In this document: piece by piece, positions 591 through 48,091 of the stretch | How the letters are laid out: the number at the start of each line of letters is the position of its first letter | How positions within the stretch are numbered: the stretch's first letter is position 1 | Notes under the pieces: model-generated | Seen by the model: only the letters and a program-made list of their open reading frames with translations | The model's database searches: none | Told to the model about the DNA's origin: nothing | Program-made: the position numbers and the translations under genes | Assembly (NCBI RefSeq): GCF_004363005.1 | Contig: NZ_SNYH01000004.1 | Location: 340,724 to 404,723, forward strand | Length of the DNA: 64,000 bases | Source: Tenacibaculum caenipelagi | GTDB taxonomy: Bacteria; Bacteroidota; Bacteroidia; Flavobacteriales; Flavobacteriaceae | Reading direction: 5' to 3'

Positions 591-610
591 AGTACTTTTT
601 TTTAATTATA

Positions 611-742
611 GTTAACAGTTAGTATAAGAATAGTAGCGAATTTTATACACAAGCCATGCAGTTTTAGACTAACTTTATATATAAAAAACGACTTCGATTA
701 AGCACCAAAGTCGCTGTTATTTTATACATTGTTGCCAGTAGT
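611..742 (-). repeat. palindromic inter-cassette element E1
   Basis: The arms GTATAAGAATAGTAGCGA (622-639) and TCGCTGTTATTTTATAC (711-727) are near-perfect inverted repeats. Read on the minus strand the element runs from GGCAACAATGTATAAAA to CTTATACTAACTGTTAAC. It matches the elements at 30526 and 33224 in arm sequence (GTATA-AAATA-GCG) and in the inner GTGCTTAATCG block. It fills almost the whole gap between the 306-590 and 785-1588 genes. Confidence 0.7.
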
Positions 743-784
743 ATTTTCTATTGCTTTTATTCCGTTTCAAATTCTATTCGAGTA

Positions 785-4420: not shown

Positions 4421-4441
4421 ACTCAAATTTCGTAAATGTTT

Positions 4442-4566
4442 TACAACGGTCTCGTATAACCGTCAGTTATCGGTTTGCTTTTAGTTTTAGCACTGGCGTT
4501 AGCAATTCCTAGTAGATTTGGACGTAGTCAAGTCCACCGTAATTGCGGTTATACATTTTTGCCAAC
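4442..4566 (-). repeat. palindromic inter-cassette element E3
   Basis: On the plus strand it starts ACAACGGTCTCGTATAACCG and ends CGGTTATACATTTTTGCC, so the outer arms GTATAACCG (4454-4462) and CGGTTATAC (4546-4554) are exact inverted repeats. Inside lie a second inverted pair (AGCAATT / AATTGC) and a small hairpin GGAC-GTAGTCAA-GTCC (4520-4535). The same layout recurs at 5119, 6160 and 6771. The stop codon of the 4549-5079 gene lies inside it. Confidence 0.7.
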
Positions 4567-5079
4567 TGGTTTTTTTATTCCGCAAACAACTCCAATCGTT
4601 GTTAATGTCATCCATAAAATCATTACTCCAAATTCTCTAATGAATGGAATATTTTTCAGGTTAACAAAAGAAATATTCTCAATCCCTAATATCCAAATTG
4701 GGAAAGAAATACTCGACAATAAAAAAGTCAAAAGAATAGTTTTCAGATTAAGGTTTATGGATTTGACTAATAAGCCATTAATTCCGATAATCATAATTCC
4801 AGCTAAACCATAAATCAAACTCGGATACATATACTTATCTGACTCAAAACTAATTACTAGAATTATTGACAAAAAAAAGATTAAGGTTGATAATAAAATA
4901 ATTATTAAAGTCTTACCTATTTTTTGTTCAATCGGTTTTTCTAAATTAATTATTGGAATTCCAATAGCGAAAATCATCGGAACAAACAAGAGGATATCAG
5001 TTTGAAATGCAAGAAACGAACCAAGTACCGCTAATATAAAATTAGTAAGTATTGTTAAATATGATTTCGAAATATTCAT
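4549..5079 (-). CDS. hypothetical membrane protein
   Basis: A 176-residue protein that is hydrophobic almost throughout, with about five or six predicted transmembrane segments (approximately residues 8-25, 28-45, 57-75, 82-105, 110-130 and 145-165). I recognise no family. The last residues and the stop (VGKNV then TAA) are read from the left arm of element E3, so the C-terminus is partly element-encoded, as in two other genes of this array. It is a single-gene unit between E3 and E4. Confidence 0.6.
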   Translation of the reverse strand: MNISKSYLTILTNFILAVLGSFLAFQTDILLFVPMIFAIGIPIINLEKPIEQKIGKTLIIILLSTLIFFLSIILVISFESDKYMYPSLIYGLAGIMIIGINGLLVKSINLNLKTILLTFLLSSISFPIWILGIENISFVNLKNIPFIREFGVMILWMTLTTIGVVCGIKKPVGKNV

Positions 5080-5118
5080 TCAATTACAGGTTTAAAGTTA
5101 TTGTTTTTGGTTTGAAAC

Positions 5119-5187
5119 CGACGTTAGCAATTCCAAGTGTGTTCAGATACAGTCGAATCCGCCGTAATTGCTGTTATACATTGTTGA
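5119..5187 (-). repeat. palindromic inter-cassette element E4
   Basis: The plus-strand sequence from GACGTTAGCAATTCC to CGCCGTAATTGCTGTTATAC followed by ATTGTTG is nearly the same as the equivalent part of E3 and E6. It includes the inner inverted pair GCAATT / AATTGC and a TCGAATCCGCC segment. The outer arm towards the 5079 gene is diverged (TTTAAAGTTATTG), so only the half adjoining the 5174-5629 gene is well kept. Confidence 0.65.
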
Positions 5188-5629
5188 TAGTCATTTTTTT
5201 TATTACTTCAATCTGACATTTTTTATTTATGGAATCTAAAATATTTTCAATTTTCCTATATTCCTTTTCAGATTTAATTTTAATCTTTTTTTCGTTTTCA
5301 ACTACTTGCTTTTGAGTTCTAATTATTGGGTCATTATGAACCCACCTATTGAGTTGGTTACCCATTTCATAGCCTTCTGGAATACTTGCTCTAGAAGTCA
5401 AAATGTTCCTTGATTGACTTTCTTTGATCTTTTTTAAAATCGGGATTAGATATATCTCAATGATTAATACTTTATCTTTATTCCGATTTGTCCATTTTAA
5501 AATCTTTTCTTCAATTGTTAGCTTGTCAAATTGCCAACCTTTTAATTTTAACTTATTACAAATTTGAATCTGTAAATTATCAGAAGAATCAATATCCGAA
5601 AGTCTAATTATTTTCTGCTTTATTTTCAA
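5174..5629 (-). CDS. hypothetical protein
   Basis: A lysine- and isoleucine-rich 151-residue protein, mostly predicted helical, with no signal peptide or membrane span and no family I recognise. Its C-terminal residues TINNV and the TAA stop are read from element E4. It is a single-gene unit between E4 and E5 in the minus-strand accessory array. Confidence 0.55.
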   Translation of the reverse strand: MKIKQKIIRLSDIDSSDNLQIQICNKLKLKGWQFDKLTIEEKILKWTNRNKDKVLIIEIYLIPILKKIKESQSRNILTSRASIPEGYEMGNQLNRWVHNDPIIRTQKQVVENEKKIKIKSEKEYRKIENILDSINKKCQIEVIKKMTINNV

Positions 5630-5649
5630 TGTTTTAGATTTTAAAATTC

Positions 5650-5733
5650 ACACAACGGTCTATTATAACAAACAGTTACAAATTTAGACTACTAGTTTTT
5701 AGGTTAAAGAACTAGTGTTACCAATACAATAGT
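5650..5733 (-). repeat. palindromic inter-cassette element E5
   Basis: On the plus strand it starts CACAACGGTCTATTATAAC, as E3 does, and ends GTGTTACCAATACAATAG. A strong inner hairpin ACTAGTT...AACTAGT spans 5691-5716. The centre is unrelated to E3/E4/E6, but the position between single-gene units and the ACAACGGTCT end identify it as the same class. Confidence 0.6.
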
Positions 5734-5736
5734 AAT

Positions 5737-6132
5737 TTATTTAAATATAGCTATTCCTATCAATATCGAAATGATTCCCATTAGGACAAAAGCAATTAAA
5801 GCTGTTTTATAATTTTTTACAGATAAACAAGTTGATTTTTCATGTTTATTTCTCCAGACCATTAATGATATAGGTTCTCCTTCCATTGTATGAGTTTTAA
5901 AAGTATGCCTGCTCTCATTACTAATTTCTATATTCTCATACTCCTGACCTTCAATTATGTATTTATAGGTAATTTCTGCTATCATTTCTCTTCCCTTTCC
6001 TACTCTCTGTTCTTTAGAAATTGCTTTTATTACTATTCCTTTTGTTTTTATTCCATTAGTAAATAAAAGGAACTTTCTTAGATTAATTCCAGCCCATATT
6101 AGAGCTATAATTCCAAACATTAAAGGTACCAT
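5737..6132 (-). CDS. DUF3592-like membrane protein
   Basis: A 131-residue protein with an N-terminal transmembrane helix (about residues 3-22), a beta-rich domain of about 80 residues containing the GIVIKA and ITYKYIIEGQEYEN strands, and a C-terminal transmembrane helix (about 108-130). This hairpin-membrane layout and strand pattern fit the DUF3592 family, whose function is unknown. It is the only gene between E5 and E6. Confidence 0.65.
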   Translation of the reverse strand: MVPLMFGIIALIWAGINLRKFLLFTNGIKTKGIVIKAISKEQRVGKGREMIAEITYKYIIEGQEYENIEISNESRHTFKTHTMEGEPISLMVWRNKHEKSTCLSVKNYKTALIAFVLMGIISILIGIAIFK

Positions 6133-6159
6133 ACATTCTTTCTTTTATTGTTTTTGTTT

Positions 6160-6240
6160 GAGAACTAACCTTAGCAATCCCGAGTTAGATTCACACGCTG
6201 TCGAATCCGCTGTAATTGTGGTTATACATTGCTGGCAGCT
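6160..6240 (-). repeat. palindromic inter-cassette element E6
   Basis: The plus-strand sequence (TTAGCAATCCCGAGTTAG, then TCGAATCCGCTGTAATTG, then TGGTTATACATTGCTGGC) aligns along its whole length with E4 and E3. It contains the inner inverted pair GCAATC / AATTGT and ends with the arm GGTTATACATT. The stop codon of the 6222-6752 gene lies within it. Confidence 0.65.
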
Positions 6241-6752
6241 TTTTTTCTTGTTTTTACTTCTAATTTACAATGAATTCCAATATCTTTCAAATCTTCAGCA
6301 ATCTCCTCTAATTCAGTATAATTGTCGTTCCAAGCTTTAAATTCAGACAATATTATTTTTCCATCATTATTTACCATTTTTAGTAATTCAGGTGTAGAAT
6401 GGTTAAGTATAGATTTTAGTTTCGAAATATTAACCTTTGAGTAGGAAATTTCTAAATTCCAATAATTTTCAAGACTTTGTAATTTATTCTCAAAATGATG
6501 AATCCAATCTACTGTTGGTGCTGAACCTTCAAATTCTGCCATGTTTCCATCTTTACTAATCAAAATTCGACCAATTCCATACCAAGATGTTCTTTCACTC
6601 CAACTTAAATCTAATTCAGATTTAATACACCAAAATAAAGAATAGCAATATTTGTGTTCTTCCATTCCTTCTTCTAAAACAATCATTTCTTTTTCAAATT
6701 CTCGTTTGCTATTAATCCAATAATTAGCTTTTTCGATTATTTCTGTATTCAT
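6222..6752 (-). CDS. hypothetical protein, possibly immunity-like
   Basis: A soluble 176-residue protein. Residues about 35-90 (with SWYGIGRILISKDG and EGSAPTVDWI) faintly resemble the YrhB/Imm35 pattern, where a G-x-G turn precedes a short strand and a GS/GT motif. The second half (about 95-170) is alternating helix and strand and ends in a basic tail. The family call is weak. The last residues AASNV and the stop are read from element E6. Its unit opens with GTTAGTGGCC and closes with a roughly complementary TGCCAGCAA. Confidence 0.55.
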   Translation of the reverse strand: MNTEIIEKANYWINSKREFEKEMIVLEEGMEEHKYCYSLFWCIKSELDLSWSERTSWYGIGRILISKDGNMAEFEGSAPTVDWIHHFENKLQSLENYWNLEISYSKVNISKLKSILNHSTPELLKMVNNDGKIILSEFKAWNDNYTELEEIAEDLKDIGIHCKLEVKTRKKAASNV

Positions 6753-6770
6753 CCGTTGATTTTGTTAAAA

Positions 6771-6866
6771 TGGCCACTAACGGTTCTTATAACCGTCAGT
6801 TATAGATTTAAATATACTTTGTTTTTCGGTTTAGCATAGGCGTTAGTAATTTCGGTTATGCATTGT
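6771..6866 (-). repeat. palindromic inter-cassette element E7
   Basis: On the plus strand it begins CACTAACGGTTCTTATAACCG and ends TTTCGGTTATGCATTGTTG, so TATAACCG and CGGTTAT form the outer arms, with GTCAGTTAT and GGCGTTAGTAATT inside as in E3. The two extreme ends (CACTAAC on one side, GTTGTAAAT on the other) are not complementary to each other. Each instead matches the far end of its own unit. Confidence 0.7.
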
Positions 6867-6881
6867 TGTAAATAGTACTTT

Positions 6882-7679
6882 CTAATCAGTTTTTCCTAAC
6901 ACTATTTTACCATAAAAAAACCAAGGAAGAAAAGTCATTCCTAAGGCAAATGGGCTATTCTTTTTATACTTTTTTGCGAGAACTTGATTAATGAAAAATT
7001 TAGGAAAAAATCGAATAAAAGGTATAAATAGAGGTACAATCCACCAAATAGGCTTATTCGTTATTCTTAACAATGTTATATTATTTAAAATTGGAATCAA
7101 AGCGTAAGACTTAATTCTATTTTCTTTTTCAAAAAGAAGGTATAAACTTTTGAAATAAATTATAACGATAGCAATTAAAAAGCTAGGAGGAGAAAAAATA
7201 TTTAGGAGCCATGAGAAATTGCCGCTTTTTAAGAATTCTATAATCGAAATATAAGGTGTGCTAATAAAATACTGTACTAAATCAAAATTATTCAAGTGAT
7301 AGGGACTAAAATCAGTTAAAATCAAAAGTCCAGTTTTATTTTCCTTTTGTGGGTTATTTACAAATTCATGAATATGATAAAAAGAAAAGTCAATTACCCA
7401 ACTGAAAATGTAGGACATTAAAACATAAAACAAGGTTACAATCAAAAAATCATAGAAAGAAGTGTTCTTGTTTTTTTCGTAATCTTTATAGGCTAAAAGC
7501 AAAAATAACCCGAATATTATTATATAATATGTTTTATTAAATATAGCATCAATTATTATTGTGTCTTCCTGTTTCTCTACATTAAATATCAGATAAAAAA
7601 TCTTAGTTATGAATGTGGTTAGCAAAACAAAGAACAAACTTTTAGTTAGACTTATTTTAATTATTTCTTTAATATTCAT
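6882..7679 (-). CDS. DUF5684-like membrane protein
   Basis: A 265-residue integral membrane protein with about six to eight hydrophobic segments. The C-terminal part (about residues 190-262: LIPILNNITLLRITNKPIWW, then FIPFIRFF, then SPFALGMTFLPWFFYGKI) matches the pattern of DUF5684, a family of unknown function that in Bacteroidetes is sometimes fused to or next to signal peptidase I. No peptidase residues are present. It is the first gene of the minus-strand array. Its unit is bounded by GTTGTAAATAATACC upstream and the near-exact complement downstream. Confidence 0.65.
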   Translation of the reverse strand: MNIKEIIKISLTKSLFFVLLTTFITKIFYLIFNVEKQEDTIIIDAIFNKTYYIIIFGLFLLLAYKDYEKNKNTSFYDFLIVTLFYVLMSYIFSWVIDFSFYHIHEFVNNPQKENKTGLLILTDFSPYHLNNFDLVQYFISTPYISIIEFLKSGNFSWLLNIFSPPSFLIAIVIIYFKSLYLLFEKENRIKSYALIPILNNITLLRITNKPIWWIVPLFIPFIRFFPKFFINQVLAKKYKKNSPFALGMTFLPWFFYGKIVLGKTD

Positions 7680-7684
7680 TTATT

Positions 7685-7710
7685 GGTATTATTTACAACT
7701 TGTTTACATA
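7685..7710 (-). repeat. array-head sequence (shared with 27199-27224)
   Basis: Minus-strand sequence TATGTAAACAAGTTGTAAAT then AATACC. It is 22/26 identical to the sequence that opens the second accessory array at 27199-27224. It precedes the first gene of the array, is preceded by a GTTTA that can pair with TAAAC, and lacks the GAGACCGTTG type end seen in the internal elements. It may be an insertion or entry site. Confidence 0.6.
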
Positions 7711-7850
7711 CAGAATAAACTTACCAGTATACTCCTTTTTGGAAAGATTTGTAGAAACTCTTAGCAATTTTATTCTTCTCATTTTTTAGCAATATAGTTG
7801 TATTTTAGAAACTATCAAAAAAGGTTTTCGCAAAAAAAGAACAACTTTTC

Positions 7851-27077: not shown

Positions 27078-27150
27078 TTTTATGGATAATATTAAAACCT
27101 TCTTGAATTACAGATTTTCTTTTATATCTTGCTAATAAAAATTTAAAAAG

Positions 27151-27224
27151 GTACGTTTATACCTCCCTATTTGGTTGTATAAAAGAACAAAAAGTGCTTA
27201 TATAAACAAGTTGTACACAATACT
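27151..27224 (+). repeat. array-head element (shared with 7685-7710)
   Basis: GTACGTTTATACC at its left can pair with TATATAAAC at its right, enclosing about 35 bp. The last 26 bases (27199-27224, TATATAAACAAGTTGTACAC then AATACT) are 22/26 identical to the start of the first array (7685-7710, minus strand). GTTGTACACAATACT (27210-27224) is also the near-exact complement of AGTACTGTGTACAAC at 30526-30540, so it marks the left end of the helicase unit. Confidence 0.6.
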
Positions 27225-27235
27225 GAACCAACTTT

Positions 27236-30200
27236 ATGATAAACATTAAACTTCCCGAATTAAAGAAAATATATTGGCAGAAAGTTGGGACAAAAAATAT
27301 TTCCAAACAACTATTAGAACCAAGTTCAAAATTGGAATACAACTTTGTTTCTTCTCATAGAAGCTATACTCTAATTGAAAATAGTGGAATTCAATATTGT
27401 TTGTGTAACAATCCAGACACAATGCCTGACGGTTTTGATTACGTTCTACTAACTAATAAAAAGGCAACCGAAGAAAGATTAGAAAACAATGAGATAAAAT
27501 TCAAAAAATGGATTAAACATCCTAAAATCAAAGAATTTACTACTGATGAAATAATTGAATCTTGGAAAGGAAATTTTTCTTTTGTTGAAGAAGACTTACA
27601 AGAAGGAATAAACGGTTTGAGAGAACCACAAATTGCAGCCTTATATTCAATTTTAAGTCACTTAAAAATTTCAGATGAAATAGGTACAGTTGTTATGCCA
27701 ACAGGAACAGGTAAAACTGAAACTATGCTTACCACTCTGATAGCCAATAGATGCGAAAAGATAATTATAACAGTTCCTTCTGATGCATTAAGAACTCAAA
27801 TTTTCAACAAATTTTATACTTTAGGATTACTTAAAAAATTTGGAATTGTAAATGAAAAAGCCCTAAATCCAAGAGTTGGAATTTTACAGCAAAATTTTAC
27901 AGAATCAGAAGAACTATTGGAGTTTATTAACGAATGTAACGTTGTTGTTACTACAATGAGTATTCTCTCAAAAAACTCAAATGAACTACTTTCATTACTA
28001 TCAGAAAATTTTTCTCATTTATTTATAGATGAAGCACACCATTCCGAAGCTCGTTCTTGGAATAGAGTAAGACTTTTTTTCAATGAATCTAAAATTTTAC
28101 AATTTACAGCGACACCATTCCGAAACGATAGAAAAAGAGTTGACGGTAAAATAATATTTAACTTTTCTCTCAAAAAAGCTCAAGAACAAGGATATTTCAA
28201 ACCAATTAATTTTCTTCCAATCAGAGAATATGACTTTAAAAAAGGAGATAAAATAATCGCAGATAAAGCGGTTGAGAAATTAAGAGAAGATATTGCTTCA
28301 GGTTACAATCATATTTTAATGGCTCGGTGCGAAAACAAAAGCAGAGCAAAAGAAATATTTGAAATTTATGAAGAGTTTGAGGATTTAAACCCTGTTATGG
28401 TTCATTCGTCAATTGCGAACAAAAAAGAAATTTTAGAGTCTATTGTCAATTGCGAACATAAAATTATTGTTGCAGTAGATATGTTAGGAGAAGGTTTTGA
28501 TTTACCGCAACTCAAAATAGCAGCATTTCACGATATTAGAAAGAGTTTACCAATCACACTTCAATTTGCTGGTAGATTTACAAGAACATCTCACGATGAC
28601 GAACTGGGCAACGCCACTTTTATTGCCAATTTAGCGGATTCAAACGTTGAGAATGAGTTAAGTGAACTTTATGCACAAGATTCAGACTGGAATTCGCTAT
28701 TATCAACATTGAGCTCTGATGAAATTGAAGAACAAATAGATTTTAATGAATTCATAGATGGCTTCCAGTATTTAGAAAGTTCAAAAATCCCGTTTCAAAA
28801 TATACGGTTTGCATTAAGCACAGTAGTTTATAAAAACAACTTTGATAAAGATGACCCAAATATTAATGTCGATGAAACCTATAATCTAAAGAAATTTAAA
28901 AAAGGAATCAAAGGATATGATGATTTGGAATATAAGTTTTCCGACTACAATGAATCCGCTAAAACATTGGTCTTGATTACCGCAGGAAAAAGCGAGGTTG
29001 AATGGGTAAACTATAAAGAAGTTTTTGGTTTAAATTGGCAATTAACAGTTCTCTACTATGATACAGATAGTAATCTTTTATTTATTCACAGTTCAGATAA
29101 ATCAAGTCTATATAAAGATTTAGCTAATGCGGTTTTGTATGATAAAGCCATAATGATTAATCAATTAAATGTATTCAAAAGTTTTTATGATATAAAGAGG
29201 GTTTCACTTCAAAACGTTGGGTTAAAGGAATTTTTAAATAGAAAAATTCGATTTACAATGAGAGTTGGAACAGATATAGAAGAAGCTTTGTCAATCGCAG
29301 AACAACAAAGAGGACAAAAAGCGTTCGTTTTTGGTTCAGGTTACGATGAAGGAGATAAAATAACTTTGGGCTGTTCGTACAAAGGTCGCATTTGGAGTTA
29401 TTTAAGAAATGATTTAAGAGGTTTCATTAAATGGTGTAATAAACTTGGTCAAAAACTAATCGATGAAACAATTGACCCAAACCAAGTTTTAAAAGAAACT
29501 TTGATTCCTCAAATTGTAAGTGAGATCCCAAAAATTTACCCAACTCATATTGATTGGGATGACAATTTTTACGACAACTCTGAATCAAGAGTTTCCTTTG
29601 TTATCGAAAACCAAGAATTCAGTTTAACATATTGTTCAATTGAACTACTGAACGCAAATGCAAATGGAGAAATAACCTTTGAAATTAATACACCAACAAA
29701 TTCTATTAAATTTAAAAAAGAGCTATTTGAAGAAACAATTGGAGAAAATCAAGTAGCAAATTTTAGAATTGTAAAAACCTCTGTCAATAATGGAGAAATA
29801 ATAATTGGTACTAAAAAGTTAGACCTAACCGAGTATTTAAACGCTTATCCTCCAATAGTTTGGTTTGCCGATGGTTCAAGATTAGAAGGCAATGAATATG
29901 TCGAATTAAAACAAATAATTTTACCATACCCAACAGAGAACCTAATTGCTTGGGATTGGTCTAATGTTGATTTAAGTAAAGAAGCACAAGGAGTAGTTCC
30001 TTTACGAACAGATTCAATACAATATGTTACAATTCAAAAGCTTATTGCAGAAGACTATGACATAGTTTATGATGATGACTATTCAGGAGAAATTGCAGAT
30101 GTAATAGCTATCAAAGAATTTGATAAAAGAATTGATATTCAGTTCTATCATCTAAAATTTGCAAAAGACGGTAACGTAAACACAAGGATAGATAACTTTT

Positions 30201-30523
30201 ATGAAGTTTGTGGTCAAGCACAAAAATCCATTCATTGGAAACATAAAAAAGGAACAGAGTTTTTTGAACATTTACTAAAAAGAAAAACCAAAGTCAGAAC
30301 AGGAAACGAAAGAAGTAGAATTGAAAAAGGAACTACGGAGGATTTGGAAAGACTATTGACTATTGCCAAAAATAAAAAACCAATGAACTTTGAGGTTTTT
30401 ATCGTTCAACCAAGTTTATCCAAACAGAATGTATCGGAAAACATTATGACGTTACTCGGAGTAACTGAAAACTACCTTAAAGAAGTCGGGAATATAGATT
30501 TAAAAGTAATAGTGAACGAGTAA
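27236..30523 (+). CDS. large DEAD/DEAH helicase with possible nuclease-like C-terminus
   Basis: A 1095-residue SF2 helicase. Walker A MPTGTGKTET is near residue 155, DEAH near 266, TATPFRND near 292 and motif VI QFAGRFTRT near 443. The middle (about 500-900) is not recognised. Near residues 940-1015, IADVIAIKEF and IDIQFYHLKF are spaced like a PD-(D/E)xK-type core with an H-x-K variant, but no firm nuclease call is possible. It stands alone in its own unit. Such single-gene helicase-nuclease proteins are common in defence islands, so an anti-phage role is a fair inference. Confidence 0.8.
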   Translation: MINIKLPELKKIYWQKVGTKNISKQLLEPSSKLEYNFVSSHRSYTLIENSGIQYCLCNNPDTMPDGFDYVLLTNKKATEERLENNEIKFKKWIKHPKIKEFTTDEIIESWKGNFSFVEEDLQEGINGLREPQIAALYSILSHLKISDEIGTVVMPTGTGKTETMLTTLIANRCEKIIITVPSDALRTQIFNKFYTLGLLKKFGIVNEKALNPRVGILQQNFTESEELLEFINECNVVVTTMSILSKNSNELLSLLSENFSHLFIDEAHHSEARSWNRVRLFFNESKILQFTATPFRNDRKRVDGKIIFNFSLKKAQEQGYFKPINFLPIREYDFKKGDKIIADKAVEKLREDIASGYNHILMARCENKSRAKEIFEIYEEFEDLNPVMVHSSIANKKEILESIVNCEHKIIVAVDMLGEGFDLPQLKIAAFHDIRKSLPITLQFAGRFTRTSHDDELGNATFIANLADSNVENELSELYAQDSDWNSLLSTLSSDEIEEQIDFNEFIDGFQYLESSKIPFQNIRFALSTVVYKNNFDKDDPNINVDETYNLKKFKKGIKGYDDLEYKFSDYNESAKTLVLITAGKSEVEWVNYKEVFGLNWQLTVLYYDTDSNLLFIHSSDKSSLYKDLANAVLYDKAIMINQLNVFKSFYDIKRVSLQNVGLKEFLNRKIRFTMRVGTDIEEALSIAEQQRGQKAFVFGSGYDEGDKITLGCSYKGRIWSYLRNDLRGFIKWCNKLGQKLIDETIDPNQVLKETLIPQIVSEIPKIYPTHIDWDDNFYDNSESRVSFVIENQEFSLTYCSIELLNANANGEITFEINTPTNSIKFKKELFEETIGENQVANFRIVKTSVNNGEIIIGTKKLDLTEYLNAYPPIVWFADGSRLEGNEYVELKQIILPYPTENLIAWDWSNVDLSKEAQGVVPLRTDSIQYVTIQKLIAEDYDIVYDDDYSGEIADVIAIKEFDKRIDIQFYHLKFAKDGNVNTRIDNFYEVCGQAQKSIHWKHKKGTEFFEHLLKRKTKVRTGNERSRIEKGTTEDLERLLTIAKNKKPMNFEVFIVQPSLSKQNVSENIMTLLGVTENYLKEVGNIDLKVIVNE

Positions 30524-30525
30524 AA

Positions 30526-30672
30526 AGTACTGTGTACAACAACGTATATAAAAAATAGCGGTTTAATCGCTTAATCAAAAGAAAATGAATAAATTAAAGG
30601 TCATTGTAAAACTGAAAAATTAGCGTGTAAAATCCGCTACTTTTCATATACAGAGCCGTTGTACAACATATG
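30526..30672 (+). repeat. palindromic inter-cassette element E8
   Basis: Left AGTACTGTGTACAACAACG then TATATAAAAAATAGCGG, right CCGCTACTTTTCATATAC then AGAGCCGTTGTACAACATAT. The inner arms GTATAT-AAAATAGCGG and CCGCTACTTTTCATATAC are near-perfect inverted repeats, with a shared TTTAATCGC / GCGTGTAAAATC layer inside. It is highly similar to E10 (33224-33356), and E1 has the same arms. Confidence 0.75.
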
Positions 30673-30691
30673 ACTGACCGAGAATAATTCA

Positions 30692-31669
30692 ATGATAGAA
30701 ACACAAATTTCGATTTTAATAAACAGAAAATCAGATGCGGAACTGATTAAGAATTGTATTATTGAAAGTAAAATCCAGTTTCCAATTTATATTTGTGAAT
30801 ACGAAAAAGACTTCGCTATTAATTTTACAAGTGACTACGAGGAATGGGAATTAGATTCCAAAATACTTAATTGCTTTCCTGAATATGAATTTACCAAAAA
30901 CATTGAAAAAGGTCGAAAAGAAATAAGATTGCAGATTTCACGAAATCAATCTGAATTTGGTTCTTATGGTTGGGTAGAAAATCCAACAAACGAGACCAAA
31001 TATCTGATAAAGAAATCAAAAGACAAGTTACAAAAATTCAATCCGAGAGTAACGGTATTATTCGAAGATAAGGAACAAGATTATTACGTGAATATTGTTA
31101 ACGGAATTAATAAAGGTTCTGGAGAAAAAGGCTTTTTACTTCTTAACGAATTTAAAAACCAAGTTGAGGATAGTGAAGTTTTAAAAGATAAACTTTACAA
31201 AACACCAATTGAAGCGTTCCATTTTGGGGTTTCAAAAATGGAGAGTATAGTAGATAATGACTTTCAAGAATATTTAAAAGAGAAAAAGAAAGCGAAAAGA
31301 AAACGAGAAAGAATCCCACGAAAAACAGTCCGAAACTTTATAAATTCCTGCAACAAAAAAGATTTGGAAGGAATTTTAAAAGACCTTGATAAAAATGTTG
31401 TTTTTGAAAAAAATATTAAAAGGAAAACTGAATGTGAATTTAATGGGATTGAAGAATTTAAAAAATATATCAAATCTGAAAATGAAGACTTGTGCAATTT
31501 AGAATTTAAAATAAGGTCATCTTGGACTATCAATTTACCATCAAGCATAACAATCGGTGTAAAATACTTCCCGGATTTGAATAAAAAAGATAATATGACA
31601 TTAATTTATAGACAATATTCATTTGAATTTAAAGACGAAAAAATAATAAGAATAACTGAAGAAAAATAA
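30692..31669 (+). CDS. hypothetical protein with C-terminal NTF2/SnoaL-like domain
   Basis: A 325-residue protein. The first two thirds are not recognised. A basic linker (about residues 190-213, rich in KKKAKRKRER) leads into a domain of about 110 residues whose start (VRNFINSCNKKDLEGILKDL) and later strands fit an NTF2/SnoaL-like cone fold. No signal peptide or membrane segments. It is the only gene in the unit between elements E8 and E9. Its role is unknown. Confidence 0.6.
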   Translation: MIETQISILINRKSDAELIKNCIIESKIQFPIYICEYEKDFAINFTSDYEEWELDSKILNCFPEYEFTKNIEKGRKEIRLQISRNQSEFGSYGWVENPTNETKYLIKKSKDKLQKFNPRVTVLFEDKEQDYYVNIVNGINKGSGEKGFLLLNEFKNQVEDSEVLKDKLYKTPIEAFHFGVSKMESIVDNDFQEYLKEKKKAKRKRERIPRKTVRNFINSCNKKDLEGILKDLDKNVVFEKNIKRKTECEFNGIEEFKKYIKSENEDLCNLEFKIRSSWTINLPSSITIGVKYFPDLNKKDNMTLIYRQYSFEFKDEKIIRITEEK

Positions 31670-31813
31670 ATACGTTGCACAACAACGTGTATAGTTCATT
31701 GCTTCTGAAATTCCTAATCGGAATTTCCTCGCAAATGTACTATCTTGGTTTCTTAATCGGAAAATCCTCGTGGATTTTCACGCAACGAAACCATACACAA
31801 AACCGTTACCCAC
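31670..31813 (+). repeat. palindromic inter-cassette element E9
   Basis: Left ATACGTTGCACAACAACG then TGTATAG, right CATACACAAAACCGTTACCCAC. GTGTAT and ATACAC form the arms with TTCATTGC / GCAACGAA inside, and the centre carries two copies of a TAATCGGAA-type hairpin (CCTAATCGG around 31713, CTTAATCGG around 31753). The outermost ends GCACAAC and GTTACCC are not complementary to each other, but each pairs with the far end of its own unit. Confidence 0.7.
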
Positions 31814-31922
31814 AAGCTGAAAACCAGCCGCACATTTTAGCACTTTCGGTTTTTTCCGACACGCAAATCCAACGCTATAAAAACCAAAAGAGCTAAAATT
31901 TTCCCAACGCTCGACAACTATG

Positions 31923-31944
31923 TATTTAAGTATTTGCTTAAATA
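31923..31944. promoter_or_regulatory. probable ArsR-family operator
   Basis: A perfect palindrome TATTTAAG-TATTTG-CTTAAATA overlapping the -33 element of the following promoter. Its 8-bp arms and AT-rich centre resemble ArsR/SmtB operators. Autoregulation by the product of the next gene is inferred. Confidence 0.6.
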
Positions 31945-31963
31945 AGAAATAAACGTAAATTTG
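31934..31963 (+). promoter_or_regulatory. promoter of the mercury-type module
   Basis: TTG at 31934-31936, a 19-bp spacer, then TAAATTTG at 31956-31963. The geometry is the same as the thr promoter. The arsR ATG is 4 nt after the -7 element, so the mRNA should be leaderless or nearly so. Confidence 0.65.
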
Positions 31964-31967
31964 TTTT

Positions 31968-32342
31968 ATGGAAAATAATTCTTGCATAAGACAACAAGCG
32001 GATATTGAACAAATAAACCGTTGCAAAGACATAGTTTCGGAATTAAACGAATCGTTCGACTATTTGGCAAATGGACTTTCATTAGTCGGAAATAGCGTTC
32101 GACTGAAAATACTTTACTTACTATTTGAGGAAAAAAGACTTTGTGTTTGTGATTTGAGCGACATTCTCGGAATGAACGTTCCAGCTATTTCTCAACATTT
32201 AAGGAAAATGAAAGACCGAAATCTATTAGAAACAGAAAGAGATGCTCAAACGATTTTTTACTCACTTACGGCTGAATACGAAAAATTACTAAATCCGTTT
32301 TTTGAGATACTTGATAAAAACAAAATTTTAGAAACGATATGA
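31968..32342 (+). CDS. ArsR-family metal-responsive repressor
   Basis: A 124-residue winged-helix repressor. The DNA-recognition helix region reads MNVPAISQHLRKMKDRNLL, and the preceding helix carries RLCVCDLSD, a CxC metal site as in arsenic/mercury-type ArsR sensors. N-terminal Cys residues (NSCIRQ and NRCKD) could complete the site. It is first in a three-gene operon with merTP and a GDCCVxC protein, overlapping merTP by 4 bp. The palindrome at 31923-31944 is its likely operator. Confidence 0.85.
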   Translation: MENNSCIRQQADIEQINRCKDIVSELNESFDYLANGLSLVGNSVRLKILYLLFEEKRLCVCDLSDILGMNVPAISQHLRKMKDRNLLETERDAQTIFYSLTAEYEKLLNPFFEILDKNKILETI

Positions 32343-32938
32343 AAAGTGAAAATAAATTAATTGGTGCAGGTTTGTTAACTGCAATTACAGCTTCCTTATG
32401 TTGTATTACACCAGTTTTGGCTCTAATCGCAGGAACAAGCGGAATTGCTTCTACATTTTCTTGGATTGAACCTTTTAGACCTTATTTAATCGGACTGACA
32501 ATTTTAGTTCTTGGTTTAGCTTGGTATCAAAAACTAAAACCTCAAAAAGAAATTGACTGCGAATGTGAGACGGACGAAAAACCAAAATTTATTCAAACAA
32601 AAAAGTTTTTAGGAATAGTCACTGTATTTGCAGTTGTAATGTTGGCTTTTCCATACTATTCAGGAGTTTTTTATCCAAATACAAACAAACAAATAATCGT
32701 AGTTGACAAATCAGACATTAAAACGACTGAATTTAAAATAAGCGGAATGACTTGTGCGAGTTGCGAAGAACACGTAAATCACGAAGTAAATAAGCTCAAC
32801 GGAATTGTAAACTCAAAGGCGTCTTACGAAAATGGAAATGCAATCGTTGAATTTGACAAAACCAAAACCAACGAAACAGAAATCGAGAATGCAATTAACT
32901 CAACAGGTTATAAAGTAACCGATAAAAAAGAAAACTAA
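32339..32938 (+). CDS. merTP: mercuric transport protein MerTP (MerT-MerP fusion)
   Basis: A 199-residue membrane protein. The N-terminal MerT-like part has a CC pair in the first helix (TASLCCITPVLALIAGTSG) and further membrane segments (about 43-60 and 92-112). An extracytoplasmic HMA domain (about residues 130-195) carries GMTCASCEEHV. These thiols would pass Hg(II) inwards, normally to mercuric reductase MerA, which is not found in this window. A second metal cannot be excluded. It overlaps the next gene start by 1 bp. Confidence 0.85.
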   Translation: MKSENKLIGAGLLTAITASLCCITPVLALIAGTSGIASTFSWIEPFRPYLIGLTILVLGLAWYQKLKPQKEIDCECETDEKPKFIQTKKFLGIVTVFAVVMLAFPYYSGVFYPNTNKQIIVVDKSDIKTTEFKISGMTCASCEEHVNHEVNKLNGIVNSKASYENGNAIVEFDKTKTNETEIENAINSTGYKVTDKKEN

Positions 32939-33144
32939 TGGAAGTCCAATTAAAATCAGAAATCACTTGTCCTAATTGCGGATATAAAAAAGTAGAAGAT
33001 ATGCCAACAAACGCTTGTCAATTTTTCTACGAATGCGAGAATTGTAAAACGGTTTTGAAACCAAAAGAAGGAGATTGCTGTGTTTATTGCTCATACGGAA
33101 CAGTTGCTTGTCCACCAATTCAAGAAAATAAAAGCTGTTGTTAA
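32938..33144 (+). CDS. GDCCVxC domain protein of a mercury module
   Basis: A 68-residue Cys-rich protein: CPNCG near the N-terminus, CENCKT, then GDCCVYCSYG (the GDCCVxC signature) and a terminal SCC. Proteins of this family are regularly found next to merTP and are thought to bind or shuttle thiophilic metals. It is last in the ArsR-MerTP operon. The start codon overlaps the merTP stop. Confidence 0.85.
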   Translation: MEVQLKSEITCPNCGYKKVEDMPTNACQFFYECENCKTVLKPKEGDCCVYCSYGTVACPPIQENKSCC

Positions 33145-33223
33145 AAAGCCAACGCTAAAAGCCATACACATTTGCAATTCGCACCAGCCAACGCTGAAAA
33201 CCAAGCTGAACGGAATAAAGCCA

Positions 33224-33356
33224 GTGGGTAACAACGTATATAAAAATAGCGGTTTAAGTGCTAAATCGAAATGAATTACATAAATTTAAGGTCAGTGTTT
33301 AACTGAAAAGTTTGTGCTTAAAATCCGCTACTTTTCATATACAAGACCATTATAAC
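33224..33356 (+). repeat. palindromic inter-cassette element E10
   Basis: Left GTGGGTAACAACGTATATAA then AAATAGCGGTTTAAGTGC, right GTGCTTAAAATCCGCTAC then TTTTCATATACAAGACC. The arms GTATATAAAAATAGCGG and CCGCTACTTTTCATATAC pair almost perfectly, extended by GGTTTAAGTGC / GTGCTTAAAATCC. It is nearly identical to E8. Its left end GTGGGTAAC is the exact complement of GTTACCCAC at 31805-31813. Confidence 0.75.
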
Positions 33357-33373
33357 ATATAAACCAAAATCTG

Positions 33374-47176: not shown

Positions 47177-47457
47177 AAGTTTAAATTTTTAGTTAGGTAA
47201 AATTATCTTTTTTAACTCTTGTTTACTCACATATACTCCTTAACTCTTTTAAAAACATGTAAAAAACTAAAAAACAATAAGTTAACTACTGAATTGTAGT
47301 GGTATTTTTTTTAAATAATCCCACCCTTTTTCTTAAATAATGACTTCCTCTTCTTCTTTTCTGCTATCAAATGCTCAATATTTGTGTGGAATAATTCAAA
47401 AAATGCGGAACCTGAAAAGCATGTAAAAGAGTAAGGAAAATTAAAAATTAATTAACC

Positions 47458-47628
47458 ATGTTAAAATCAATTTCAAACTTAGGAAACGTTTTGAATAAAT
47501 CAGAACAAAGGACTATTAATGGAGGTCAAATTACTTGTCCTAGAGGTCAAGTACTAAAATGCAACTGGTTGGGATGCTGGTGTGAAGCAGAATATGTTGA
47601 AGAACTTCCTAAGGACTTTGATCACTAA
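47458..47628 (+). CDS. double-glycine leader peptide 1 of 3
   Basis: A 56-residue product. The leader MLKSISNLGNVLNKSEQRTI followed by NGG is nearly identical in the next two genes. The region after GG is different and has four Cys (C27, C35, C40, C42, ending GCWC). Leaders of this type are cut after GG by C39-peptidase ABC exporters and precede bacteriocins or peptide pheromones. It is short, but start, stop, spacing and paralogy support a real gene. No exporter gene is in the window. Confidence 0.75.
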   Translation: MLKSISNLGNVLNKSEQRTINGGQITCPRGQVLKCNWLGCWCEAEYVEELPKDFDH

Positions 47629-47656
47629 AATTATTAACAACTAACATCAAAGAATC

Positions 47657-47863
47657 ATGTTAAAATCAATATCAAATTTAGGAAATGTTTTAAACAAAGT
47701 GGAACAGAAAAGTATTAACGGAGGAGGTCCTGGAGATCCTAAATGGTGTAATAATTCTGATAATTGGGGACCAAACCCTACTGCATGTCTTAGAGGACAA
47801 GAACGTGTTTATGATCCTTCTTTAGGTTACTGCGTTTGTAAAGGTAAAGTTGCTGAAATGTAA
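47657..47863 (+). CDS. double-glycine leader peptide 2 of 3
   Basis: A 68-residue product. The leader MLKSISNLGNVLNKVEQKSI then NGG matches peptides 1 and 3. The core is longer and Gly/Pro/Asn-rich, with four Cys at 31, 44, 59 and 61 (ending CVC), so the C-x-C end is kept although the rest differs. It lies 28 bp after peptide 1 and 26 bp before peptide 3, so the three are probably one transcript. Confidence 0.75.
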   Translation: MLKSISNLGNVLNKVEQKSINGGGPGDPKWCNNSDNWGPNPTACLRGQERVYDPSLGYCVCKGKVAEM

Positions 47864-47889
47864 TAATAACTATTTAAAAACAATAAACT

Positions 47890-48069
47890 ATGTTAAAATC
47901 AATTTCAAATTTAGGAAATGTTTTAAACAAAACAGAACAAAGAGAAATTAATGGAGGTTTAATACAATGTCCTGACCATACAAGATATGTGTGTATAGGC
48001 ATACCTCCTATGGTATCATGTTGGTGTCAACCATTTGCTCTTCCTGGTGATGAAATAGCTACTAGATAA
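47890..48069 (+). CDS. double-glycine leader peptide 3 of 3
   Basis: A 59-residue product. Leader MLKSISNLGNVLNKTEQREI then NGG. The core has Cys at 27, 35, 44 and 46 (ending SCWC), so the first two Cys have the same spacing as in peptide 1 (seven residues apart) and the final Cys-Trp-Cys is shared. It is followed by a strong terminator at 48092. Confidence 0.75.
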   Translation: MLKSISNLGNVLNKTEQREINGGLIQCPDHTRYVCIGIPPMVSCWCQPFALPGDEIATR

Positions 48070-48091
48070 TAGAAGTAACTTGTTAAAATAT

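What the first reader, a model, noticed from the sequence alone, without database searches (positions are those of the whole stretch)
27199..33356. Integron-like cassette architecture: each unit's two ends pair with each other, not with the neighbour in the same element
Helicase unit: GTTGTACACAATACT (27210-27224) is the near-exact complement (14/15) of AGTACTGTGTACAAC (30526-30540). NTF2-like unit: GTTGTACAACATAT (30658-30671) vs ATACGTTGCACAAC (31670-31683), 12/14. Mer unit: GTTACCCAC (31805-31813) vs GTGGGTAAC (33224-33232), 9/9. Within element E9 the two ends (GCACAAC and GTTACCC) do not pair with each other. This is what circular cassettes joined by recombination at G/TT predict, because R'' of a site matches R' at the start of its own cassette. 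Known integrons are poorly represented in Bacteroidetes and no integrase is seen here. A novel recombination system is possible; so is an integrase-less array.
Basis: partly seen in the sequence, partly recalled or inferred. Interest (0 to 1): 0.93.

Follow-up and report, generated by a model that had tools for sequence, protein, structure and literature searches.

The report
Orphan arrays of a new integron-like system
The window holds leftover gene-cassette arrays of an integron-like gene-capture system found across marine flavobacteria, which uses its own recombinase rather than the known integron enzyme and in relatives builds very long cassette arrays.

Summary
The window has two arrays, 27.2-33.4 kb (+) and 7.7-0.6 kb (-). 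They are cassette arrays whose ~125-nt sites fold on the bottom strand: 496 bottom-strand G.T wobbles against 16 top-strand ones in 231 sites. No integrase was found beside them. Relatives have one: a ~385-aa tyrosine recombinase just upstream, on the same strand, of a head site (ATATAAC..|GTT) and the first cassette, in Polaribacter, Tenacibaculum, Winogradskyella, Lutibacter and others. Unnamed same-genus genomes have arrays spread over about 100 kb. The enzyme scores below the integron-integrase cut-off, lacks the IntI-specific insertion and falls outside the IntI clade. The site boxes rarely fit GTTRRRY/RYYYAAC (9 of 231; 13 of 243). One cassette shared by two lineages runs GTT to GTT. So it works like an integron but is not an IntI integron: a new variant. 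Recombination itself is inferred, not shown.

The parts
27135..27212 (+). Head (attI-like) site of array A, ending ...TATATAAACAA|GTT; the G/TT at 27210 starts the first cassette
   Evidence: Same [AG]TAAAC[AT]A|GTT motif with similar context at other array heads of this genome (the short motif also hits a few coding places). At one of them (L041) the same 39 bp (97%) lie just behind the integrase gene in relative G042.
27210..30657 (+). Cassette 1: ResIII/DEAD helicase (27236-30523)
   Evidence: Own ends pair 14/15; Pfam ResIII, DEAD, Helicase_C
30528..30673 (+). attC-like element A1 (R'' TGTGTAC|AAC with AAC at 30538; R' GTT at 30658)
   Evidence: CM hit 1.5e-25, a training element; bottom strand folds better than top (z -5.2 against -2.9)
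30658..31804 (+). Cassette 2: 325-aa protein (30692-31669), no Pfam match
   Evidence: Own ends 12/14; N7 6/7; Pfam none at E<=0.01
31671..31820 (+). attC-like element A2
   Evidence: CM hit 6.5e-21, a training element
31805..33348 (+). Cassette 3: ArsR-type regulator (31968-32342), MerT + HMA protein (32339-32938) and a short frame from about 32938 that was not tested
   Evidence: Own ends 9/9; Pfam HTH_5, MerT, HMA. A 91.7% identical stretch of 1412 bp lies in the giant array of relative G001 (L055:18413-19820).
33220..33364 (+). attC-like element A3, last of array A; its right end reads ATT (33349-33351) instead of GTT
   Evidence: CM hit 2.5e-26, a training element
7697..7760 (-). Head (attI-like) site of array B, ...TATGTAAACAA|GTT (GTT 7699-7697)
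6878..7699 (-). Cassette B1: 265-aa protein with a DUF5684 match (6882-7679)
   Evidence: Head N7 GTAAATA and element N7 TATTTAC are exact reverse complements (read); Pfam
6766..6877 (-). attC-like element B1
   Evidence: CM hit 9.8e-15, a training element
5047..5195 (-). attC-like element B4, right end not recognisable
   Evidence: CM hit 7.8e-7
4432..4570 (-). attC-like element B5
   Evidence: CM hit 6.2e-22, a training element
601..743 (-). attC-like element B6; further elements follow beyond the window start, to about C4:337,760
   Evidence: CM hit 8.5e-21, a training element
6145..6250 (-). Degenerate element B2 (left half only)
   Evidence: Seen by eye; no CM hit at E<=1
5640..5745 (-). 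Degenerate element B3 (mostly right half)
   Evidence: Seen by eye; no CM hit at E<=1

Best explanation
These are arrays of mobile gene cassettes of an integron-like system of Flavobacteriaceae, here without their integrase. In intact copies a ~385-aa tyrosine recombinase gene is followed, on the same strand, by a head site (ATATAAC..|GTT), often with a promoter-like box (TATATTTG) just before it, and a row of cassettes. Each cassette is usually one gene ending in a ~125-nt site that folds as a single strand. Proposed mechanism: the recombinase binds the folded bottom strand of the circular cassette's site, where R'' pairs with the R' of the same cassette, and joins it at G/TT to the head site or to another cassette site. 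Inserted cassettes therefore carry paired ends within the unit and unrelated ends within a junction element. Strand choice would be set by conserved G.T wobbles, which pair only in the bottom strand, rather than by the extrahelical bases that the IntI-specific insertion reads (recalled for IntI4), an insertion this enzyme lacks. Shown: arrays, head site, integrase linkage, within-unit pairing, bottom-strand bias, a shared cassette with GTT-to-GTT limits, no integrase found here. Inferred: catalysis, the single-strand substrate, promoter function, and loss of the integrase in this lineage.
For: Within-unit pairing 6.0/7 against 2.6 shuffled. First cassettes behind the head site pair too: 39 of 48 at 6 or 7 of 7. 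189 of 190 elements in 80 integrase loci lie downstream of the integrase and 0 are antisense; 43 of 47 loci with at least 1.5 kb of downstream sequence hold one. Bottom-strand wobble bias 496:16, and 93:15 after dropping the three commonest positions. Element and integrase in the same 156 genomes: 44 both, 9 integrase only, 28 elements only, 75 neither, odds ratio 13, p 2e-11 (cross-tabulated by hand; Fisher). Of the 80 longest between-genome alignments listed, 10 end within 7 bp of the head-site GTT after running through the integrase. One cassette shared by L097 and L154 starts exactly at GTT and ends 4 bp past the start of the next GTT in both, at different array positions. Longest ORF in units outside this genome: 129 of 171 on the cassette strand, 4 against, 38 without an ORF of 60 aa.
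Against: No recombination has been shown. Pairing in this genome is only 4.08/7 (24 units). 9 of 53 genomes with the integrase show no element at E<=1e-4, and 28 of 72 with elements show no integrase at E<=1e-60; decay, divergence, strict filters or thresholds may explain this, untested, and the weakest integrase matches may be other relatives. The element profile was built with AAC and GTT in it, so their constancy is partly by construction. Predicted folding favours the bottom strand by energy in 7 of 8 elements tried but by z-score clearly in only 5 of 8. Most listed alignments do not end at the head site; some stop 20-200 bp short of it. The empty-site test behind folD failed for want of a matching flank. 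A head-like block also stands before other genes in relatives. The wide group of integrases has moderate support (89/81) with long branches.
Confidence: 0.88

Rival explanations
1. The arrays are an ordinary IntI integron remnant (CALIN) with a divergent attC consensus, captured from a donor with a classical integrase.
For: GTT/AAC cores, within-unit pairing, bottom-strand bias and one-gene cassettes are all integron traits. IntI is common elsewhere in the phylum, 85 of 296 genomes.
Against: No IntI over the cut-off in this genome, and none of the 86 matching genomes is marked as of this order, while a different recombinase sits beside the arrays. R boxes fit GTTRRRY in 9 of 231 and RYYYAAC in 13 of 243.
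Confidence: 0.05
2. The elements are RNA hairpins (terminators or 3' stabilisers) or REP/MITE-like repeats placed behind genes.
For: They follow stop codons closely (median 15 bases from stop to the end of AAC) and fold.
Against: Wobbles favour the strand opposite to the transcript 496:16. Ends pair across the unit (median 670 bases) and not within the element. Linkage to an integrase on one strand. No Rfam family overlaps them at gathering score in the window or in the four array loci scanned.
Confidence: 0.03
3. Cassettes are moved by host XerC/XerD (as in Xer-dependent modules), and the adjacent integrase is incidental.
For: This genome keeps arrays with only XerC, XerD and two larger integrases.
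Against: The head motif follows the dedicated integrase in 70 of 80 loci, and where that gene is missing here the pairing is poorer (4.08 against 6.2-6.3).
Confidence: 0.04

Closest known systems
Chromosomal integrons / superintegrons (IntI, attI, attC; e.g. Vibrio)
   Same: Integrase + head site + array of cassettes with folded ~125-nt sites, joined at G/TT, R' and R'' paired within a cassette, arrays of about 100 kb
   Different: Integrase below the IntI cut-off and without the IntI insertion; R boxes are GTT-N7-AT and AC-N7-AAC with a variable paired N7 instead of GTTRRRY/RYYYAAC; strand marked by G.T wobbles, and 123 of 207 sites pair 14 of 14 without a bulge; integrase co-directional with the array (divergent in most integrons, recalled)
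CALIN (cluster of attC sites lacking an integron integrase)
   Same: The window's arrays are integrase-less
   Different: Sites belong to the non-IntI family described here; several head-like sites remain in the genome
Homology-independent uptake of aph(3')-IVb in Riemerella anatipestifer (PMC13148043, 2026; section 11 and passages read)
   Same: In Flavobacteriales a gene with 27 bp 5' UTR and 140 bp 3' UTR integrated without flanking homology; its 3' segment is reported to fold like attC; mechanism left open by its authors
   Different: Sequences were not compared here, and the words integrase and recombinase do not occur in its main text; a lead only
XerA (archaeal Xer; PDB 5hxy)
   Same: Closest solved relative of the integrase core (phmmer 1e-41; top fold match)
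   Different: The integrase has an extra ~92-residue N-terminal part without a Pfam match and sits at cassette arrays

Membership tests
Integron (IntI/attI/attC) | Integrase of the IntI family (TIGR02249 cut-off 265 bits) | tested here: not met
   197-211 bits for the four integrases scanned
Integron (IntI/attI/attC) | IntI-specific insertion in the catalytic domain (PMC8138268, passages read: essential for integron function, though not fully conserved in its subgroup) | tested here: not met
   IntI4 residues 183-237 face only residues 271-282 of P0002; TIGR02249 matches in two stretches in all four
Integron (IntI/attI/attC) | Integrase inside the IntI clade | tested here: not met
   16 IntI of this phylum form one clade, 100/100; the new integrases fall outside
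Integron (IntI/attI/attC) | R boxes GTTRRRY / RYYYAAC (consensus recalled) | tested here: not met
   9 of 231 and 13 of 243; only the GTT/AAC core is kept
Integron (IntI/attI/attC) | Cassette ends pair within the cassette, so junction elements mix two cassettes | tested here: met
   6.0/7 within units, 2.74 within elements, 2.60 shuffled
Integron (IntI/attI/attC) | Site folds on the bottom strand | tested here: met
   By wobble asymmetry 496:16; indirect, no biochemistry; predicted energies favour it only modestly
Integron (IntI/attI/attC) | Extrahelical bases in the attC stem | tested here: inconclusive
   123 of 207 sites pair 14 of 14 without a bulge; one element class has an extra G in the alignment
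Integron (IntI/attI/attC) | attI-like head site next to the integrase, receiving the first cassette | tested here: met
   Found by motif in 70 of 80 loci; 39 of 48 first cassettes pair at 6 or more of 7
Integron (IntI/attI/attC) | Cassettes exchanged between genomes with limits at G/TT | tested here: met
   L097/L154 cassette, 974 bp, start at GTT and end 4 bp past the next GTT's start in both; a single full case, species-level genomes only
Integron (IntI/attI/attC) | Integrase recombines attI x attC | not testable with these tools
   Needs experiment
Rfam RNA families | Covariance-model match over the element | tested here: not met
   No hit at gathering score over an element in the window or in four array loci; relaxed hits were all below gathering
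Xer-dependent modules | Units flanked by XerC/XerD (dif-like) sites | not tested
   No dif model was run

The most novel reading that the evidence does not exclude
A second lineage of integrons: a recombinase family outside IntI recombines folded single-stranded cassette sites without the IntI-specific insertion, choosing the strand by conserved G.T wobbles. It serves as a major gene-capture platform of Flavobacteriaceae and some other Bacteroidota, on chromosomes (arrays of about 100 kb) and on plasmids (Chryseobacterium, Persicobacter, Flammeovirga, Flagellimonas).
Probability: 0.75. Interest if true: 0.95.

Novelty: new variant of a known kind. Interest (0 to 1): 0.9.

Why it matters
Integrons are taken to rest on one integrase family whose special insertion is held essential. 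A second solution in a large group of marine and other bacteria would show what is truly needed for single-strand cassette recombination. It would also explain precise gene gain in Flavobacteriaceae, and may explain the homology-independent uptake reported in Riemerella. Element-bearing plasmids, one of them carrying erm(F), suggest that it could move resistance genes. Tools built on IntI and its attC are likely to miss it (not run here).

Tried and rejected
Rfam gave no family over the elements at gathering score and only sub-gathering hits at a relaxed limit. Element A1 against plasmids by DNA found one Flammeovirga and one Persicobacter record; a class I element found none; an element of the Chryseobacterium plasmid found only its own plasmid. 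The integrase against phages found 29 records at E<=1e-20, none covering 80% of the query. The empty-site test behind folD in the genus was inconclusive (29 downstream regions read out of 53 genomes with folD). No attC covariance model of the IntegronFinder kind was at hand. XerC, XerD and the 396- and 431-aa integrases of this genome were considered as movers and set aside because the dedicated enzyme sits at the head site in relatives; the AACAAYGTRTA word near the 396-aa gene lies inside another reading frame. The AlphaFold model is only moderate (pLDDT 78, pTM 0.51; residues 340-353, which hold the catalytic tyrosine, below 50), so nothing rests on it beyond the fold matches to XerA and IntI4.

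Literature: PMC searches gave no description of this system in their listings. PMC9024848 (passages) reports a complete integron in Bacteroidetes in Salinibacter ruber M1, after only In0 elements earlier. PMC2426708, PMC8618304, PMC8138268 and PMC5637372 were read in passages, PMC13148043 in section 11 and passages. Subscription papers and preprints were not searched.
Full report
Observation. They are part of a larger picture: the same window carries a second array on the minus strand (head GTT at 7699-7697, elements at 6766-6877, 5047-5195, 4432-4570 and 601-743, plus two degenerate ones seen by eye), and elements continue past the window start. The word AACAAYGTRTA occurs 43 times in the 3.27-Mb genome against 9 for the word read backwards; not every one is an element, several lie in coding frames. 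A covariance model built from 24 elements, bottom strand, has 55 hits in this genome at E<=1, of which 51 at 2.1e-4 or better; the 24 training elements come from this genome.

Test of the claim. With a sequence profile (nhmmer) 311 elements were found in 102 loci: this genome's stretches, same-genus stretches and named integrase loci. For consecutive elements 150-4000 bases apart, the 7 bases after GTT at the start of a unit were compared with the 7 bases before AAC at its end. 195 units average 6.0 of 7 matches, 160 of them at 6 or 7; 200 shuffles of partners average 2.60 (sd 0.10, maximum 2.85); the two ends of the same element average 2.74 (242 elements). By group: this genome 4.08 (24 units), same genus 6.17 (52), named loci 6.31 (119). 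So the pairing is within units, and poorer in this genome. Undetected elements between two detected ones would also lower the figure, and this was not separated from decay. The first cassettes of the two window arrays, which one search does not count, pair 7 of 7 when read directly (GTACACA with TGTGTAC; GTAAATA with TATTTAC).

Which strand folds. On the 24-element alignment 64 stem cells are G.T wobbles on the bottom strand and 7 on the top strand. On 231 distinct elements, with the register chosen by Watson-Crick pairs only, the counts are 496 and 16 (named loci 317:4, genus 135:2, this genome 44:10); 225 elements lean to the bottom strand, 2 to the top, 4 tie; 9 elements with fewer than 9 Watson-Crick pairs of 14 were dropped. 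Without the three commonest positions it is 93:15. Elements are related, so p-values overstate independence. Wobbles at stem positions 7 and 12 are near-constant (188 and 161 of 231). The geometry is tight in 207 elements from outside this genome: AAC to GTT median 125 nt (5-95%: 122-127), right spacer 6 nt in 186, and 123 with 14 of 14 pairs without a bulge. Predicted DNA folds of eight elements are lower in energy on the bottom strand in seven (not A3), but the z-score favours it clearly in only five (not A2, A3 or the L037 element). A transcript hairpin would lean to the other strand in its wobbles.

Integrase. No IntI passes the cut-off here and PF00589 finds four genes over its cut-off: XerD, XerC, and enzymes of 396 and 431 aa. 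Of 30 same-genus integrase loci, 26 were printed with their downstream sequence: 25 of the 26 have ATATAAC..GTT within about 250 bp after the stop (not L066), and 12 of the 26 have TATATTTG just before it, a box I recall as the -7 type of Bacteroidetes promoters. In these 80 loci (77 with the stop codon inside the contig) 189 of 190 elements lie downstream on the integrase strand, one upstream, none antisense; 43 of 47 loci with at least 1.5 kb downstream have one. The head motif was found in 70 of 80; 48 first cassettes average 6.1 of 7, 39 at 6 or 7.

What the enzyme is. Pfam: PF00589 and SAM-like domains; residues 1-92 match nothing. NCBIfam: XerA_Arch 203-220 bits (cut-off 220, none over it), integron integrase 197-211 (cut-off 265), the latter in two stretches. 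Against IntI4 (2a3v) residues 183-237 of IntI4 face 12 residues of the integrase, so the IntI-specific insertion, which PMC8138268 calls essential for integron function while noting that it is not fully conserved in its subgroup (passages read), is missing. In a tree of 57 rows the 16 IntI form one clade (100/100), 22 Flavobacteriaceae integrases another (100/100), and the new integrases with distant relatives form a group at 89/81; the Chryseobacterium plasmid enzyme is on a long branch. NCBI labels some relatives 'site-specific tyrosine recombinase/integron integrase', so the label exists; the searches made found no description of the system.

Spread. In 156 Flavobacteriales genomes at least 95% complete, elements (E<=1e-4, stricter filters) occur in 72 and the integrase profile (E<=1e-60) in 53; both 44, integrase only 9, elements only 28 (this genome among them), neither 75 (cross-tabulated by hand, Fisher). 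Some of the weaker integrase matches carry stops or may be other relatives. True IntI passes its cut-off in 85 of 296 genomes of the phylum; none of the 86 listed is marked as same order, family or genus. Plasmids: Chryseobacterium sp. SNU WT5 has a 347-aa integrase followed by five elements on its strand; Persicobacter psychrovividus pPP2 has 21 element hits at E<=0.1 in 16 kb, all on one strand; a Flammeovirga plasmid stretch has five; a Flagellimonas plasmid has elements on both sides of a dihydrofolate reductase family gene, next to erm(F) and a 272-aa xerA.

Movement. Of the 80 longest between-genome alignments listed, ten run through the integrase and end within 7 bp of the head-site GTT (L121/L123, L126/L134, L122/L134, L122/L126, L111/L114, L141/L144, L136/L144, L136/L141, L144/L148, L141/L148; these come from a few groups of related species); others end 20-200 bp short of it or lie elsewhere. 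One cassette is first in L097 (a Flavobacteriales MAG, UBA6772) and internal in L154 (Winogradskyella marincola), 87.7% over 974 bp, from exactly GTT to 4 bp past the start of the next GTT in both; large parts of it recur in L105 (Tenacibaculum pelagium, where it is first) and L167. Of 24 in-array alignments between genomes, 30 of 48 ends and 13 of 48 starts lie within 15 nt of a GTT; many are element-only matches, whose starts are not expected there. The window's mer-type cassette has a 91.7% copy in the giant array of G001.

This genome. At the array locus read in L041 the flank conserved with G017 (83-86%) runs up to the head, while G017 has a stop-bearing integrase gene between flank and head, and G042 one of full length whose following 39 bp match this genome's head at 97%. 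The simplest reading is loss of the integrase in this lineage with arrays and several head-like sites left behind. A remnant of the gene was not found, but the genome is a 14-contig draft.

Closest report. PMC13148043 (section 11 and passages read) describes homology-independent integration of a gene with its 140-bp 3' segment in Riemerella, with an attC-like fold and no mechanism. I did not compare sequences; it is a lead.

Verdict. It works like an integron; it is not an IntI integron by three tested features of the enzyme and one of the site. Recombination, the single-strand substrate and the role of the wobbles are inference.

Noticed in passing
window 47440-48070: Three tandem short genes starting MLKSISNLGN..LNK..EQ..INGG, which look like leader-type peptide precursors, behind an Rfam DUF805b hit at 47402-47437.
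   Followed up: no
L210 (Flagellimonas marinaquae plasmid NZ_CP092416) 3891-4746: Elements of this family on both sides of a dihydrofolate reductase family gene, beside erm(F) and a 272-aa xerA-type recombinase.
   Followed up: partly
L175 (Persicobacter psychrovividus pPP2): 21 element hits at E<=0.1 in 16 kb, with DUF4272 and DUF4279 genes recurring between them.
   Followed up: no
G071, G060, G013: 33, 28 and 21 matches to the integrase at E<=1e-5, many at Xer level: unusually many tyrosine recombinases.
   Followed up: no
L213, L214, L216 behind folD: A promoter-like block (TTGTTATATTRGCTA or near it) and, in L213, two copies of ACTAAAAGTGCTTAYATAAAC-like sequence recur behind folD in relatives, like the head of array A; origin unresolved.
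   Followed up: partly
L040 9507, L041 3284 and 5773: Some elements of this genome run into a terminator-like hairpin and a promoter-like block, in L040 followed by a new head site, as if heads had been copied within arrays.
   Followed up: no
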